Notes under the pieces: model-generated
What the model saw: the letters and a program-made list of their open reading frames with translations, nothing else
What the model was told of the DNA's origin: nothing
Database searches by the model: none
Position numbers and translations under genes: made by a program
NCBI RefSeq assembly: GCF_001697225.1
Contig: NZ_CP014671.1
Coordinates: forward strand, 1,116,001-1,180,000
DNA: 64,000 bases
Source of the DNA: Immundisolibacter cernigliae
GTDB lineage: Bacteria; Pseudomonadota; Gammaproteobacteria; Immundisolibacterales; Immundisolibacteraceae
Direction of reading: 5' to 3'
Shown: piece by piece, positions 19,292 through 59,918 of the stretch
Layout of the letters: each line of letters begins with the position of its first letter
How positions within the stretch are numbered: position 1 is the first letter of the stretch

Positions 19292-20665
19292 TCAGGCGCT
19301 GGCCGAGCGCTTGGCCGGTTCGGCACCCTGCTGGCCGCCCAGGCCGGCCTGCATCAGGCGCAGCCATTCGCGGTACTGGCCGTGGTAGAGCGTCTCGTCG
19401 GTGGCGTCCGGACCGCTGCTGCTCGGGTGGATGCCCAGTTCCTTGGCGAAGGCGTCCGGGCCGTTGACCATGTGCGTCATGCCGCGATCGTAGCCCTGCT
19501 GCCACTCGACGATGCGCGCCTCGTAGCCGGCCTGGCAGGCTTCGAAGATGGCCAGATCGTCCGGCGTGGCCATGCCGGTGGCGTTGAAGAAATCCTCGTA
19601 CTGGCGGATGCGCCGCTCGCGCATGCTGGCCGACTCGCCCTTGGCCGCGATGCAGTAGATCTTGACCTCGGTGAGGTCGTGCGAGATCGGCCGGAACACG
19701 CGAATCTGCGACGAGGCCTGCTCCATCAGCTGCACGTTGGGGTAGATCAGCAGGTTGCGCTGGCGCTTTAGCATCCACTCGGCCATGGCGCCGCCGACGC
19801 GCTGCTCGACCTCATCCTTGTGCTCCCACAGCGGGCGGTTCTGCGGCATCGGAAAGTCGATCCAGATCAGCGCGTGGCCGCGCTGCAGGTCGTAGCAGCC
19901 GCTCTTGAAGCCCTTCATCATGGACTCGTCGTAGGCGACCTTGACCTTGTCGTCCTTGCCGGCGGCCGAGGCCTTCATGCGCCGCGCGATGACGCCCACG
20001 TAGTTGGCGTGGATGGTCGTGAAGTGGTAACCGTCGATGCCGTTTTCGGCCTGCATCTTCCAGTTGCCGCGGTACTGGTAAGTGGAATAGCCCTTGATGA
20101 CCTCGGCGCCCTGCGGCGACATGGCGTCGAGCATGTCCACGAACGGGCCGGCGTCGGCCAAGTGTTCGCGCAGTGGCGGCACGTCCGGGTTCAGGCTGCC
20201 GAACACGAAGCCCTTGTAGCTTTCCAGGCGCGCGATGTGTTTGAGGTCGTGGTCCTGCCGCTCGAAGGCCGGCGGGTAGGCGCCCGTGGCGCGGTCCTTG
20301 ATTTCCATGTTCCGGCCGGCCGAGTCGTACACCCAGCCGTGGTAGGGGCAGGTCAGGAACTTGCTGTTGCTCTTGGCGGTGCGGCACAGCGTGGCGCCGC
20401 GGTGCGCGCAGGCGTTCACGAAGCAGTGCAGCTTGCCGTCGCCGTCGCGGCTGACGATCACCGGCTGGCGGCCGATGTGGGTGGTGAAGTGATCGTGCGG
20501 CCTGGCCACCTGGCTTTCGTGGCACAGGTAGATCCAGGTGCCCTCGAAGATGTGCTTCATCTCCAGCTCGAACAGTTCTTCATCGGTGAACAGCTTGCGG
20601 CTGACCTCGAACAGGCCGTCCTGAGGGCGGTCGATCAGCAGCCGGTTCAGATCGTTGGGCGTCAT
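19292..20665 (-). CDS. Rieske oxygenase alpha subunit, benzoate/toluate 1,2-dioxygenase type (orphan)
   Basis: A 457-residue ring-hydroxylating oxygenase large subunit close to BenA/XylX/AntA: KLFTDEELFELEMKHIFEG, IYLCHESQ and GFVFGSLNPDV. The Rieske cluster ligands are C86-A-H88 and C106-P-Y-H109. The mononuclear iron site is D211-x2-H214-x4-H219 in AENGIDGYHFTTIH. Such enzymes add O2 across an aromatic ring to give cis-diols. The start at 20665 has AGGAGG nearby, and the 23 upstream codons are not family-like. No beta subunit, reductase or diol dehydrogenase adjoins it; the next genes are HIT and VanZ, so partners must be elsewhere. Confidence 0.88.
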   Translation of the reverse strand: MTPNDLNRLLIDRPQDGLFEVSRKLFTDEELFELEMKHIFEGTWIYLCHESQVARPHDHFTTHIGRQPVIVSRDGDGKLHCFVNACAHRGATLCRTAKSNSKFLTCPYHGWVYDSAGRNMEIKDRATGAYPPAFERQDHDLKHIARLESYKGFVFGSLNPDVPPLREHLADAGPFVDMLDAMSPQGAEVIKGYSTYQYRGNWKMQAENGIDGYHFTTIHANYVGVIARRMKASAAGKDDKVKVAYDESMMKGFKSGCYDLQRGHALIWIDFPMPQNRPLWEHKDEVEQRVGGAMAEWMLKRQRNLLIYPNVQLMEQASSQIRVFRPISHDLTEVKIYCIAAKGESASMRERRIRQYEDFFNATGMATPDDLAIFEACQAGYEARIVEWQQGYDRGMTHMVNGPDAFAKELGIHPSSSGPDATDETLYHGQYREWLRLMQAGLGGQQGAEPAKRSASA

Positions 20666-31755: not shown

Positions 31756-33159
31756 ATGCAGATCGAACAAGGATGGCAACCGTCTGAAATCGAGCGCCTG
31801 GTGGATGTCGAGAACGCCACCGCCAGCCGCCTGATCTTCACCGACGAGAACCTGTTTCGCCTCGAGTTGCAGCGCATCTTCACGCGCACCTGGCTGTACA
31901 TCGGCCACGAGTCGGAAATTCCCAAAAACGGCGACTACGTCACCCGCAAGATGGGCAACGACCCGGTCATCCTGGTGCGCGACAACACCGGTCGCGTGCG
32001 CGTGCTGCTGAACAGCTGCACCCACCGCGGCACCCTGGTGTGTCGCACCGACAGTGGCCACGGGCGCGGCTTCACCTGCCCGTACCACGGCTGGGTGTTC
32101 AGCACCAGCGGCGCCCTGGTGGCGACAGCCGAGGACAACACCTACGGCGGCAAGGTCGACTTCCGCAGCCTGGACCTGCGCCAGGCGCGAGTGGGCAGTT
32201 ACGCCGGGCTGGTGTTCGCCACCTGGAATCACGACGCGCCATCCCTGGACCAGCACCTGGGCGACGCCCGCTGGTATCTGGACATCATGTTCAACCGCAC
32301 GCCCAAGGGCATGACCGTGCTCGGCCTGCCGCACCGCTGGAGCCCCACCAACAACTGGAAGCTCGGCCCGCTGAACTTCGGCGCCGACGGTCCGCACGCG
32401 GTCAAGGTGCACGGCCCGATCGTGGACGCCGCCCTGGCCGGCGGCATGCCCGGCGCGCGCGCCATGATCACGAAAGCGCTGGTCGACAGCCCATCGGTGG
32501 CGGCGGGTCCGTACAACGGCATCTGGACCCAGGGTCCGCTGGAGATGCCGCCGTGGTTCGGCTATGACCCGGACCTGGTGGCGCTGTACAAGCAGACGCT
32601 CAAGCCAGAGCAGGTGCAAATCCTGGAGCGCTGTCTGGCCTCGGTCGGCACGGTGTTCCCGAATTTCTCCTGGGTCTATGGGCCGATCGGCTTTGACATG
32701 CAGCGCGAACCGGTCACCAACTTCTTCGCCATCCGTGTCTGGCAACCAATCGCAGTGAACCGAACCGAAATCTGGAACTGGTTCCTGGTCGAGGAAGAAG
32801 CCGGCGAGGCGCTCAAGCAACAGGCCATGCTGGCCGGCGTGCGCACCTTCACCGCCGGCGGTACCTTCGACCAGGACGATGCCGAGGCCTGGCACGGCAT
32901 CCAGCGTGGCAGCGAAGGCGAGATCTCGCGCACCCTGGACGTGAATTTCCAGGTGGCGCTGAACTACCGCGACCGGCCGATCGCCGACTGGCCCGGCCCC
33001 GGCGTTGCCTACCCTCGAATTACTGCGAGGTCACGGAGTTCAACAACCTGCTGCAGTGGCGCGCCTACATGTCCGGCGCGCGCTGAAATCCGGCGCCAAC
33101 GATTGCTGCCGGTCTGCAAAAGGCCGGCGGCTCGCCTTTTTCTGGAGAGTTCCGAGTGA
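31756..33159 (+). CDS. Rieske ring-hydroxylating oxygenase alpha subunit (3' end frameshifted)
   Basis: A large subunit of an aromatic-ring-hydroxylating dioxygenase. The Rieske ligands are CTH (in NSCTHRGTLVCR) and CPYH; the iron site is in NFGADGPHAVKVHG (D-x2-H-x4-H). The residue before the ligands is LNF rather than the usual ENF. The family is otherwise normal to about residue 419. There the frame is lost: after AYP the true C-terminus continues in the next frame as NYCEVTEFNNLLQWRAYMSGAR and stops at 33086. As written, the frame runs on with an unrelated Arg/Ser/Cys-rich tail into the beta gene. One base is missing from the C-run 33012-33014. GGAGG lies just before the ATG. Confidence 0.85.
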   Translation: MQIEQGWQPSEIERLVDVENATASRLIFTDENLFRLELQRIFTRTWLYIGHESEIPKNGDYVTRKMGNDPVILVRDNTGRVRVLLNSCTHRGTLVCRTDSGHGRGFTCPYHGWVFSTSGALVATAEDNTYGGKVDFRSLDLRQARVGSYAGLVFATWNHDAPSLDQHLGDARWYLDIMFNRTPKGMTVLGLPHRWSPTNNWKLGPLNFGADGPHAVKVHGPIVDAALAGGMPGARAMITKALVDSPSVAAGPYNGIWTQGPLEMPPWFGYDPDLVALYKQTLKPEQVQILERCLASVGTVFPNFSWVYGPIGFDMQREPVTNFFAIRVWQPIAVNRTEIWNWFLVEEEAGEALKQQAMLAGVRTFTAGGTFDQDDAEAWHGIQRGSEGEISRTLDVNFQVALNYRDRPIADWPGPGVAYPRITARSRSSTTCCSGAPTCPARAEIRRQRLLPVCKRPAARLFLESSE

Positions 33160-33689
33160 CCACCGAGACCGCCGCGCGCGTCGTTGAAGACGCGCTCTAC
33201 CGCCGCCTGTGCGACTTCTATTACGACGAAGCCGACCTGCTGTCGCAGCGCCAGTATGTGAAATGGTTCGCGCTGCTGACCGAGGACATCCACTACCGCG
33301 TCGGCTTTCCGGAGTTCTACGAGCATGGCACCCGGCGCCAGATCGGCATCGGCAATCCGTACTTCGACGACAACCACGTCAGCCTGAAAGTGCGCACCAA
33401 CCTGCTGGGCAACCCGACCACCACCACGGCCGAGAACCCGCCGAGCGTCTACAACTATTTCGTCACCAACATCCGCGCCCGCCGGGCCACCGACGAGGCG
33501 GACGCGATCGACGTCGACAGTCGCCTGCTGATCTACCGCGTGCGTGCCAGTGAACCGGTGCCGTTCATCCTGGGCGCCCGGCGCAAGGACCGGCTGCGCA
33601 TCGAGGGCGACGGCTTTCGCATCGCCCGCCGAGACGCCGCCATCGACCAGTCCATCATCCAGTCGCCGAACCTGAGCTTCCTGCTCTGA
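33156..33689 (+). CDS. Ring-hydroxylating dioxygenase beta subunit
   Basis: A 177-residue small subunit (SnoaL/NTF2-like fold) with the family features LYRRLCDFYYDEADLLSQRQYVKWFALLTEDIHYRV (in parts, YDEADLLSQRQY and EDIHYRV), NYFVTNIRARR and LGARRKDRLR. Beta subunits shape and stabilise the alpha3beta3 enzyme and carry no cofactor. The GTG start at 33156 has GGAGAG upstream. It directly follows the frame-corrected alpha subunit (33086), so the two form one enzyme. No ferredoxin or reductase follows. Confidence 0.92.
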   Translation: MTTETAARVVEDALYRRLCDFYYDEADLLSQRQYVKWFALLTEDIHYRVGFPEFYEHGTRRQIGIGNPYFDDNHVSLKVRTNLLGNPTTTTAENPPSVYNYFVTNIRARRATDEADAIDVDSRLLIYRVRASEPVPFILGARRKDRLRIEGDGFRIARRDAAIDQSIIQSPNLSFLL

Positions 33690-58360: not shown

Positions 58361-58729
58361 TCAGGCCGCCATCACGAAGATGGCAATGATGCAGGCCAGG
58401 CCGCCCACGTAGGACAGCGAGCGCAGCGTCGCCTGGTTGGCGATGTAGAACACCGCATGCAGCACGCGCAGCGCCACGAAGGCCAGCGCCAGCTGATCCA
58501 GCGTGCCCTGCGCCAGGCCGGTCAGGTGGCCGATGATCACCGCCGCCGCGAACGGGGCGAAGTTCTCCAGCGCATTCTGCTGCGCCCAGTCGGCGCGCTT
58601 GCGCCAGCCGCTTGCCGCGGCCAGTGCCTCGCGCGGCCGGCTGTTGTCAAAGCCGCCGCTCTTGGCCATGGCACCCAGCACAGGCGGGAAAAACACCAGT
58701 GCCAGCACGCACCAATAGGCTATCGTCAT
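58361..58729 (-). CDS. MAPEG-family membrane protein
   Basis: A 122-residue protein with four membrane segments. The MAPEG pattern is seen: RADWAQQNALENFAPFAAAVI with the conserved Asn-Ala-x-Glu-Asn/Ala-Phe stretch after the second segment, then ALAFVALRVLHAVFYI. The superfamily includes microsomal glutathione transferases and leukotriene enzymes; small bacterial forms are uncharacterised. It is downstream of the DszB-like gene by 42 bases and may share its transcript. Confidence 0.88.
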   Translation of the reverse strand: MTIAYWCVLALVFFPPVLGAMAKSGGFDNSRPREALAAASGWRKRADWAQQNALENFAPFAAAVIIGHLTGLAQGTLDQLALAFVALRVLHAVFYIANQATLRSLSYVGGLACIIAIFVMAA

Positions 58730-58771: not shown

Positions 58772-59806
58772 TCAGGCGACCGCCGGCAGCCCCTCCCGCC
58801 GGTATGCCTGTTCCAGAAACCGCGGCTGCATCCAACTTTCCAGGTCGACCGGCCCCAGATAGCCGCGGCCTTGCATGAAATCGATCTGCACCTGCAGCAG
58901 GCGGCGCACTTGCGGCCCGAACGATGGCCACAGTTTCTTGTGGAAGTCCGGCTCGTAGGTGTTGCGGATGTCGTCCGCCGACACGCCCAGCTCACGGGCC
59001 ATGGTTTCGGCCGCCTCAGCCGGGTGCGTGGCCGCCCAGTTGGCAGTGCGCACCAGCACCTGCAGGTAGCGTTCCACGGCCTCGGGCGCCTCCCTGGCCA
59101 GGCCGGCGCTGACGGTGATGATGCGCGGGTTGGCGTTGACCATGTGCGCGCGATCGGTCTGGTCGGTCATCAGGTCGTACAGCTTGCGGATGCGCCCGGC
59201 ATAGCGGCGCTCGATCAGGCCGACCTCGGCATTCTTGCAGAAGATGGCGTCGACCTCGCCGCGCAGCAGGTGGTCGACGTCCGCGTCGTACAGGCTCGGC
59301 CGGTCACCCTGCTTCAGGTCCGCGTTGATGCTGCCGTGCATGTCGTCGTTGACGATCATCTCCACGAACCTGACGTCCGACTCGGCCATGCCGTTGGCGG
59401 CCAGGGTCGAGTAAAAACCCTTGTGGGCGTTGACCTTCATGAAATCGATCAGGATGTACGGACGCACCGGCAGCCCGCAGCGGCGGCCGGCCAGATCCTG
59501 CACGCGCCGTGCCGGGTCGTCGGCGCGCACGAACACGGCCAGCGAGTCGGCGACGAAGGTCAGGCCCACCGCCAGCGTGTCGGCGCCGCGCGTACGCGCC
59601 CACAGCGGCGGGATGGCGCCGCCCTCGCGGAACGAGTCGGCCAAGCGGTGATCGAAATGCGTGTCCGCCTGCGACGGGCCCAGTTCCTTGATGTTGCGAA
59701 CCTCGAACGCGGAACCGGCAAACTCCTCGTCGAAGGACTTGCGCTGAAAGGCGATACCGGAAGCCGTGGCCACCGGGCAGCGCGTATACCATAGGGTTCG
59801 GGGCAT
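58772..59806 (-). CDS. DszB-like desulfinase / SBP-fold protein without signal peptide
   Basis: A 344-residue protein of the periplasmic-binding-protein-like fold usually annotated as an ABC (sulfonate/nitrate/taurine) substrate-binding protein. It has no signal peptide. It aligns with the biodesulfurisation enzyme DszB, whose active site is Cys27, His60 and Arg70: here C10 (YTRCPVATASG), H50 (ADTHFDH) and R60 (DSFREGGAIPPL), with the same ten-residue His-Arg spacing. The C-terminal DLESWMQPRFLEQ also parallels DszB. A cytoplasmic C-S (sulfinate) lyase or other hydrolase is plausible; the substrate is unknown. ATG 59806 has AGGAGG seven bases upstream; ATG 59812 is too close. Confidence 0.72.
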   Translation of the reverse strand: MPRTLWYTRCPVATASGIAFQRKSFDEEFAGSAFEVRNIKELGPSQADTHFDHRLADSFREGGAIPPLWARTRGADTLAVGLTFVADSLAVFVRADDPARRVQDLAGRRCGLPVRPYILIDFMKVNAHKGFYSTLAANGMAESDVRFVEMIVNDDMHGSINADLKQGDRPSLYDADVDHLLRGEVDAIFCKNAEVGLIERRYAGRIRKLYDLMTDQTDRAHMVNANPRIITVSAGLAREAPEAVERYLQVLVRTANWAATHPAEAAETMARELGVSADDIRNTYEPDFHKKLWPSFGPQVRRLLQVQIDFMQGRGYLGPVDLESWMQPRFLEQAYRREGLPAVA

Positions 59807-59918
59807 GTTCATTCCTCCTCGCCGCACCGAGGAAGCCCCCGGATGCTTGAATGCGGGCACTTTAGCCCCCAGCTGCCAGCATCGACAACCGCCAGCAGGC
59901 TCTCTCGTGCCAGACGCG

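What the first reader, a model, noticed from the sequence alone, without database searches (positions are those of the whole stretch)
59627..59779. DszB-like protein with a conserved Cys-His-Arg active site and no signal peptide
Seen: C10 in RCPVATASG, H50 and R60 ten residues apart, followed by GGAIPPL, in a protein that starts without a leader. Known: DszB (2'-hydroxybiphenyl-2-sulfinate desulfinase) uses Cys27, His60 and Arg70 with the same His-Arg spacing and a GGEIPPL stretch. Automatic annotation normally calls such proteins ABC substrate-binding proteins. Inference: this is a cytoplasmic enzyme, possibly a C-S lyase on an aromatic sulfinate, in an organism that also has ring-hydroxylating oxygenases.
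Basis: partly seen in the sequence, partly recalled or inferred. Interest (0 to 1): 0.62.

Follow-up and report, generated by a model that had tools for sequence, protein, structure and literature searches.

The report
DszB-like desulfinase in Immundisolibacter cernigliae
A gene that standard protein-family libraries would label an ABC-transporter binding protein is by sequence a cytoplasmic relative of DszB, the enzyme that strips sulfur (as sulfite) from an aryl sulfinate in fuel-desulfurizing bacteria; it keeps all of DszB's catalytic residues but has a different substrate pocket and no desulfurization operon around it.

Summary
A leaderless 344-aa gene (window 58772-59806, minus) carries C10, H50, R60 and GGAIPPL. 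The genome is Immundisolibacter cernigliae TR3.2 (identical length, 3,243,537 bp), a PAH degrader. A profile of the protein and 13 relatives matches crystal-structure DszB end to end (E=6e-40; best true binding protein 2.7e-4), placing Cys on C27, His on H60, Arg on R70 and Gly on G73, with Thr at S25. A tree joins DszB and this family (97/96) apart from eight NMT1/SsuA-type proteins. C/H/R is kept in every intact Immundisolibacteraceae copy and nearly every distant relative. Most distant relatives lie beside FMN monooxygenases of sulfur scavenging (SsuD-like, DszA-like, SfnB/DszC-like). Best reading: cofactor-free desulfinase by Cys proton donation. It is not shown to be DszB itself: DszB residues Y63 and Q65 and the W155-bearing insert are absent, and no dszAC operon surrounds it. 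Substrate is unknown; an aromatic decarboxylase of the same chemistry is not excluded. Structure prediction failed for lack of usable homologs (pLDDT 34), so geometry rests on alignment. Moderate interest: a new variant of a known enzyme kind, widely mis-annotated.

The parts
58772..59806 (-). CDS of the DszB-like protein, 344 aa, no signal peptide
   Evidence: SD GAGGAGG at 59814-59820; dN/dS 0.14-0.18
59783..59785 (-). T8, position of DszB S25 (hydrogen-bonds the catalytic His)
   Evidence: profile alignments; role of S25 from PMC6100217
59777..59779 (-). C10 codon (TGC), position of DszB C27, predicted proton donor
   Evidence: invariant in the 15-member alignment with DszB
59657..59659 (-). 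H50 codon, position of DszB H60
59627..59629 (-). R60 codon, position of DszB R70 (R-x-G-G motif)
59618..59623 (-). G62-G63; G63 is the position of DszB G73
58361..58729 (-). MAPEG-family membrane protein, 42 nt downstream, same strand; possible co-transcription, kept in three Immundisolibacter genomes
   Evidence: PF01124 E=2.6e-25; synteny in L022 and L011
59919..60338 (+). SnoaL-like protein, divergent neighbour, kept in three Immundisolibacter genomes
   Evidence: PF13474 E=6.3e-18; synteny

Best explanation
The gene encodes a cytoplasmic, cofactor-independent desulfinase of the DszB lineage. A substrate sulfinate (R-SO2-) is held by R60 and the G63 carbonyl; H50, tuned by T8, stabilises the C10 thiolate; C10 donates its proton to the carbon bearing sulfur, and SO2/sulfite leaves. 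The substrate is an organic, probably aryl, sulfinate other than 2'-hydroxybiphenyl-2-sulfinate. Shown here by sequence: lineage, conservation of the catalytic set, absence of a leader, selection. Inferred: the reaction (from DszB), the substrate, and the source of the sulfinate (an unlinked FMN monooxygenase such as the DszA-like gene at G000:C1:1948081-1949397, or angular dioxygenation by a ring-hydroxylating oxygenase).
For: Profile of target plus 13 relatives against all PDB sequences: DszB 6e-40 over residues 20-363; next, NrtA/SsuA-type binding proteins at 2.7e-4 or weaker. hhalign to M. yongonense DszB 99.9%, 322 columns; to an exported NMT1-family binding protein of the same genome 14.6%, C-terminal half only. 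Tree: DszB and the family form one clade, 97/96, apart from eight NMT1/SsuA-type proteins. C/H/R intact in every intact Immundisolibacteraceae copy found and in nearly all distant relatives. No leader: most hydrophobic 11-mer in the first 40 residues 1.45, against 2.0-2.7 in exported binding proteins. Distant relatives mostly sit beside SsuD-like, DszA-like or SfnB/DszC-like flavin monooxygenases, as does DszB in its own dszABC operon. The genome's paralog (45% identical) lies with an HsaB/HpaC-type flavin reductase in a conserved cluster. Mechanism and residue roles in DszB: PMC6100217. A divergent DszB-type enzyme in an operon that converts benzothiophene is on record: PMC3868597.
Against: No monooxygenase, flavin reductase or sulfur gene is linked to the window copy; its conserved neighbours are MAPEG and SnoaL-like. 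DszB Y63 and Q65 are H53 and L55 here, and the DszB insert around residues 128-156 is missing. No usable structure model. C-H-R fits a decarboxylation equally well. Overall identity to DszB is about 30% or less.
Confidence: 0.6

Rival explanations
1. A cofactor-free aromatic decarboxylase: the same Cys proton donor, His and carboxylate-binding Arg protonate the ring carbon and release CO2 instead of SO2, as part of PAH or hydroxyaryl-acid catabolism.
For: The chemistry is analogous to electrophilic desulfination. The family is multiplied in a PAH-degrading lineage (2 copies per Immundisolibacter genome, up to 4 in the sister genus). The paralog lies in a cluster with an HsaB-like flavin reductase, next to a BphC-like extradiol dioxygenase, and sister-genus copies flank a DHDPS-type aldolase; neither looks like sulfur scavenging.
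Against: Relatives with the same catalytic set are found with SsuD/SfnB/DszA-type sulfur monooxygenases. The only characterised enzymes of the clade known to me act on sulfinates.
Confidence: 0.2
2. A cytoplasmic ligand-binding or sensor protein that kept the residues for binding an organosulfur anion but is not a catalyst.
For: Same fold superfamily as SsuA/NMT1 binding proteins. Distant relatives are often encoded beside ABC transporters. Some natural relatives have Cys replaced by Ser in tandem with a Cys copy.
Against: Cys, His and Arg are all kept, which binding alone would not need. No leader and no permease or ATPase nearby. In the Pseudomonas-type and Streptomyces clusters the transporters have their own separate binding proteins.
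Confidence: 0.12
3. A true DszB: 2'-hydroxybiphenyl-2-sulfinate desulfinase in a scattered 4S pathway for dibenzothiophene.
For: Catalytic residues conserved; a full-length DszA-like gene (45% identity to M. yongonense DszA) exists elsewhere in the genome.
Against: Pocket residues and the insert differ. Best DszC hit in the genome is 27% over part of the length. The DszA-like protein belongs to the broad NtaA/DmoA family, matches an NTA-monooxygenase-type structure as well as DszA, and lies about 0.77 Mb away.
Confidence: 0.06
4. An ordinary periplasmic ABC substrate-binding protein, as Pfam/NCBIfam-based annotation would suggest.
For: NMT1 PF09084 hit; sub-threshold TIGR01728 SsuA hit.
Against: DszB itself gives the same sub-threshold TIGR01728 hit (65 against 69 bits, cut-off 163.5). 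No leader, no partner genes, and the tree excludes it from the NMT1/SsuA-type group.
Confidence: 0.02

Closest known systems
DszB, 2'-hydroxybiphenyl-2-sulfinate desulfinase (PDB 2DE2/2DE3/2DE4)
   Same: End-to-end homology; C27/H60/R70/G73 present as C10/H50/R60/G63, S25 as T8; RxGG and IPPL; no leader.
   Different: 30% identity or less; Y63 and Q65 replaced by H and L; no insert around 128-156 (W155); not in a dszABC operon; no dszC equivalent found.
BdsA of Gordonia terrae C-6 (benzothiophene operon bdsABC, PMC3868597)
   Same: Also a divergent DszB-type desulfinase, described as of low homology to DszB, whose operon converts benzothiophene.
   Different: Operon-borne with DszC- and DszA-like genes; its sequence could not be compared here.
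SsuA/NMT1-type ABC substrate-binding proteins (PF09084, TIGR01728)
   Same: Shared fold superfamily; weak profile hits.
   Different: Exported, with permease and ATPase partners; outside the DszB clade in the tree.
Uncharacterised DszB-like proteins of Sinorhizobium, Pseudomonas-type, Burkholderia, Streptomyces and Paracoccus plasmids and genomes
   Same: About 28-37% identity, same C/H/R set; annotated, where annotated, as ABC transporter substrate-binding protein.
   Different: Clustered with flavin monooxygenases and transporters; target and paralogs form a separate Immundisolibacteraceae clade.

Membership tests
DszB-type desulfinase lineage | Full-length homology to DszB, closer than to binding proteins | tested here: met
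DszB-type desulfinase lineage | Catalytic Cys27, His60, Arg70 and RxGG (G73), hydroxyl residue at 25 | tested here: met
   residue roles PMC6100217
DszB-type desulfinase lineage | Cytoplasmic, no signal peptide | tested here: met
   (hydropathy only; no dedicated signal-peptide predictor available)
DszB-type desulfinase lineage | Cys, His and Arg meet in one cleft | tested here: inconclusive
   AlphaFold run with two sequences gave pLDDT 34.5
DszB-type desulfinase lineage | Sulfite release from a sulfinate | not testable with these tools
   needs an enzyme assay
DszB proper (HBPS desulfinase, 4S pathway) | Pocket residues Y63 and Q65 and the insert with W155 | tested here: not met
   H53, L55, insert absent
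DszB proper (HBPS desulfinase, 4S pathway) | dszABC operon, or a clear DszA and DszC elsewhere in the genome | tested here: not met
   DszA-like gene present but unlinked; best DszC hit 27%, partial; no operon
ABC substrate-binding protein (SsuA/NMT1) | Export signal | tested here: not met
ABC substrate-binding protein (SsuA/NMT1) | Linked permease and ATPase | tested here: not met
   gene list around 55-64 kb; nearest ABC transporter of that import type at 47.9-53.5 kb has its own Peripla_BP_5 binding protein
ABC substrate-binding protein (SsuA/NMT1) | Curated profile score above cut-off | tested here: inconclusive
   PF09084 above its gathering score, TIGR01728 far below its cut-off; DszB likewise below on TIGR01728

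The most novel reading that the evidence does not exclude
The DszB lineage was recruited and multiplied in PAH-degrading Immundisolibacteraceae as cofactor-free carbon-protonating lyases (aryl desulfinases or decarboxylases) inside aromatic catabolism rather than sulfur scavenging, the conserved units being [379-aa protein of unknown family + DszB-like + HsaB-like flavin reductase] and [SnoaL-like / DszB-like + MAPEG].
Probability: 0.25. Interest if true: 0.65.

Novelty: new variant of a known kind. Interest (0 to 1): 0.42.

Why it matters
DszB is a slow, product-inhibited step of biodesulfurization and is known from few close relatives. This work marks out a larger family, annotated where annotated as transport proteins, that keeps its rare catalytic set with a different pocket. 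It offers many natural variants for sulfur removal from fuels and for assigning C-S lyases in sulfur-scavenging clusters, and it warns that NMT1/SsuA annotation can hide enzymes.

Tried and rejected
The genome-contig scan returned one relative only, because its patterns were too specific. Viral contigs: none. A literature link between 4,5-dihydroxyphthalate decarboxylase and the NMT1 fold: no papers found. Species description of I. cernigliae not held. The 379-aa neighbour of the paralog has no Pfam, NCBIfam or convincing PDB match, alone or as a profile against the PDB; my first guess of an M29/NicX-like protein is unsupported. The DszA-like gene was considered as partner but is unlinked and of a broad family.

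Full report
What is there. The ORF on the minus strand of window 58772-59806 starts at an ATG preceded by GAGGAGG with 7 nt spacing and encodes 344 aa. C10, H50, R60 and GGAIPPL are present as described; the coordinates given are those of codons 10 to 60. The genome is one contig of 3,243,537 bp, the exact length published for strain TR3.2 (PMC5054325), later named Immundisolibacter cernigliae; the closest named record is an Immundisolibacter MAG, 90% identical in protein. The organism is a PAH degrader with 21 reported xylX-type oxygenase genes (PMC9535955); Rieske oxygenase subunits occur in the window at 19295-20665 and 31756-33686.

Homology. Single-sequence phmmer against PDB sequences: DszB 2.3e-18, binding proteins 0.16 and worse. 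A profile of the target and 13 relatives without DszB gives 6e-40 for DszB in one stretch from residue 20 to 363, placing C10 on C27, H50 on H60, R60 on R70, G63 on G73 and T8 on S25; the next hit is 2.7e-4. hhalign agrees (99.9%, 322 columns) and gives 14.6% for an exported NMT1-family protein from the same genome, aligned only in the C-terminal half. Maximum likelihood puts DszB and the family in one clade (97/96) opposite eight NMT1/SsuA-type proteins, and target plus paralogs in one Immundisolibacteraceae clade (97/95); the outgroup branches are long, so the split is supported rather than proved. Library annotation is a poor guide: Pfam says NMT1, and TIGR01728 scores the target at 69 bits and DszB itself at 65, both far under the cut-off of 163.5.

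Conservation. In 15 aligned members including DszB the invariant columns include C10, P11, H50, R60, G62, G63 and P66. All intact Immundisolibacteraceae copies keep C, H and R. C27S inactivates DszB (PMC6100217). Against two congeners the target has dN/dS 0.14-0.18, like a housekeeping neighbour.

Location. The most hydrophobic 11-residue stretch in the first 40 residues scores 1.45, against 2.0-2.7 in leadered binding proteins of the same and other genomes. No importer permease or ATPase is adjacent; the ABC cassette at 47.9-53.5 kb carries its own Peripla_BP_5 binding protein.

Context. Among distant relatives, a flavin monooxygenase lies next to or near the DszB-like gene in Streptomyces, Sinorhizobium, Allorhizobium, Paracoccus, Burkholderia, two Pseudomonas-type genomes and an unnamed proteobacterium; in one further genome an LLM gene is about 1.2 kb away, and in Variovorax the neighbours include a sulfurtransferase and a cysteine dioxygenase. 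Two of those LLM proteins that were scanned score best as alkanesulfonate monooxygenases, and the acyl-CoA-dehydrogenase-like one from Sinorhizobium has SfnB and DszC among its hits; none of these passes its curated cut-off. The window copy lacks such a neighbour: its conserved neighbours are SnoaL-like and MAPEG. The paralog at C1:1095740-1096777 lies in a conserved unit with a 379-aa protein of unknown family and an HsaB/HpaC-type flavin reductase, in both Immundisolibacter and the sister genus, with a BphC-like dioxygenase nearby in I. cernigliae. In the sister genus two further copies flank a DHDPS-type aldolase. The genome holds one full-length DszA-like gene, unlinked, and no good DszC.

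How it would work. In DszB the Cys27 proton attacks the sulfur-bearing carbon while H60 stabilises the thiolate, S25 tunes H60, and R70/G73 contact the sulfinate (DFT study PMC6100217). All five positions are present here, S25 as Thr. Y63 and Q65, whose mutation affects DszB activity, are H53 and L55, and the DszB insert that contains W155 is missing, so another substrate is expected. Aryl sulfinates could come from the DszA-like enzyme or, from general knowledge not tested here, from angular dioxygenation of dibenzothiophene sulfone by a ring-hydroxylating oxygenase. The same active site could protonate an aryl carboxylate with loss of CO2; genomic context in this family does not exclude it.

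Limits. No structure model could be obtained, no signal-peptide predictor was available, substrate and activity are inferred, and neighbourhood counts come from about ten distant loci, some of them related to each other.

Noticed in passing
L041 7740-8732 and 8825-9880; same arrangement in L080-L109: Pseudomonas-type genomes carry a tandem DszB-like pair, one with the catalytic Cys and one with Ser at that position (natural counterpart of inactive DszB C27S), about 66% identical, in 15 of 15 positive genomes of one genus. A hetero-oligomer or pseudoenzyme partner is possible.
   Followed up: partly
L017 11821-12960 (G000:C1:1096821-1097960): A 379-aa protein without Pfam, NCBIfam or convincing PDB match, conserved upstream of the DszB-like paralog and flavin reductase in seven Immundisolibacteraceae genomes; 76% mean column identity.
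   Followed up: partly
L068 4488-5414 (G000:C1:1816987-1817913): A second leaderless NMT1-fold protein, outside the DszB clade, lies directly after ring-hydroxylating oxygenase-type genes; possibly another hidden cytoplasmic enzyme.
   Followed up: partly
G000:C1:1948081-1949397 (L115 8073-9401): Orphan DszA/NtaA-family FMN monooxygenase, 45% identical to DszA of M. yongonense, not near any recognised sulfur gene.
   Followed up: partly
L038 5221-6234 (minus): Burkholderia plasmid record with three DszB-like copies, one degenerate (Cys to Ser and His to Ile).
   Followed up: no
L019 1657-4963; L072, L073: In the sister genus two divergent DszB-like genes flank a DHDPS-type aldolase gene.
   Followed up: no
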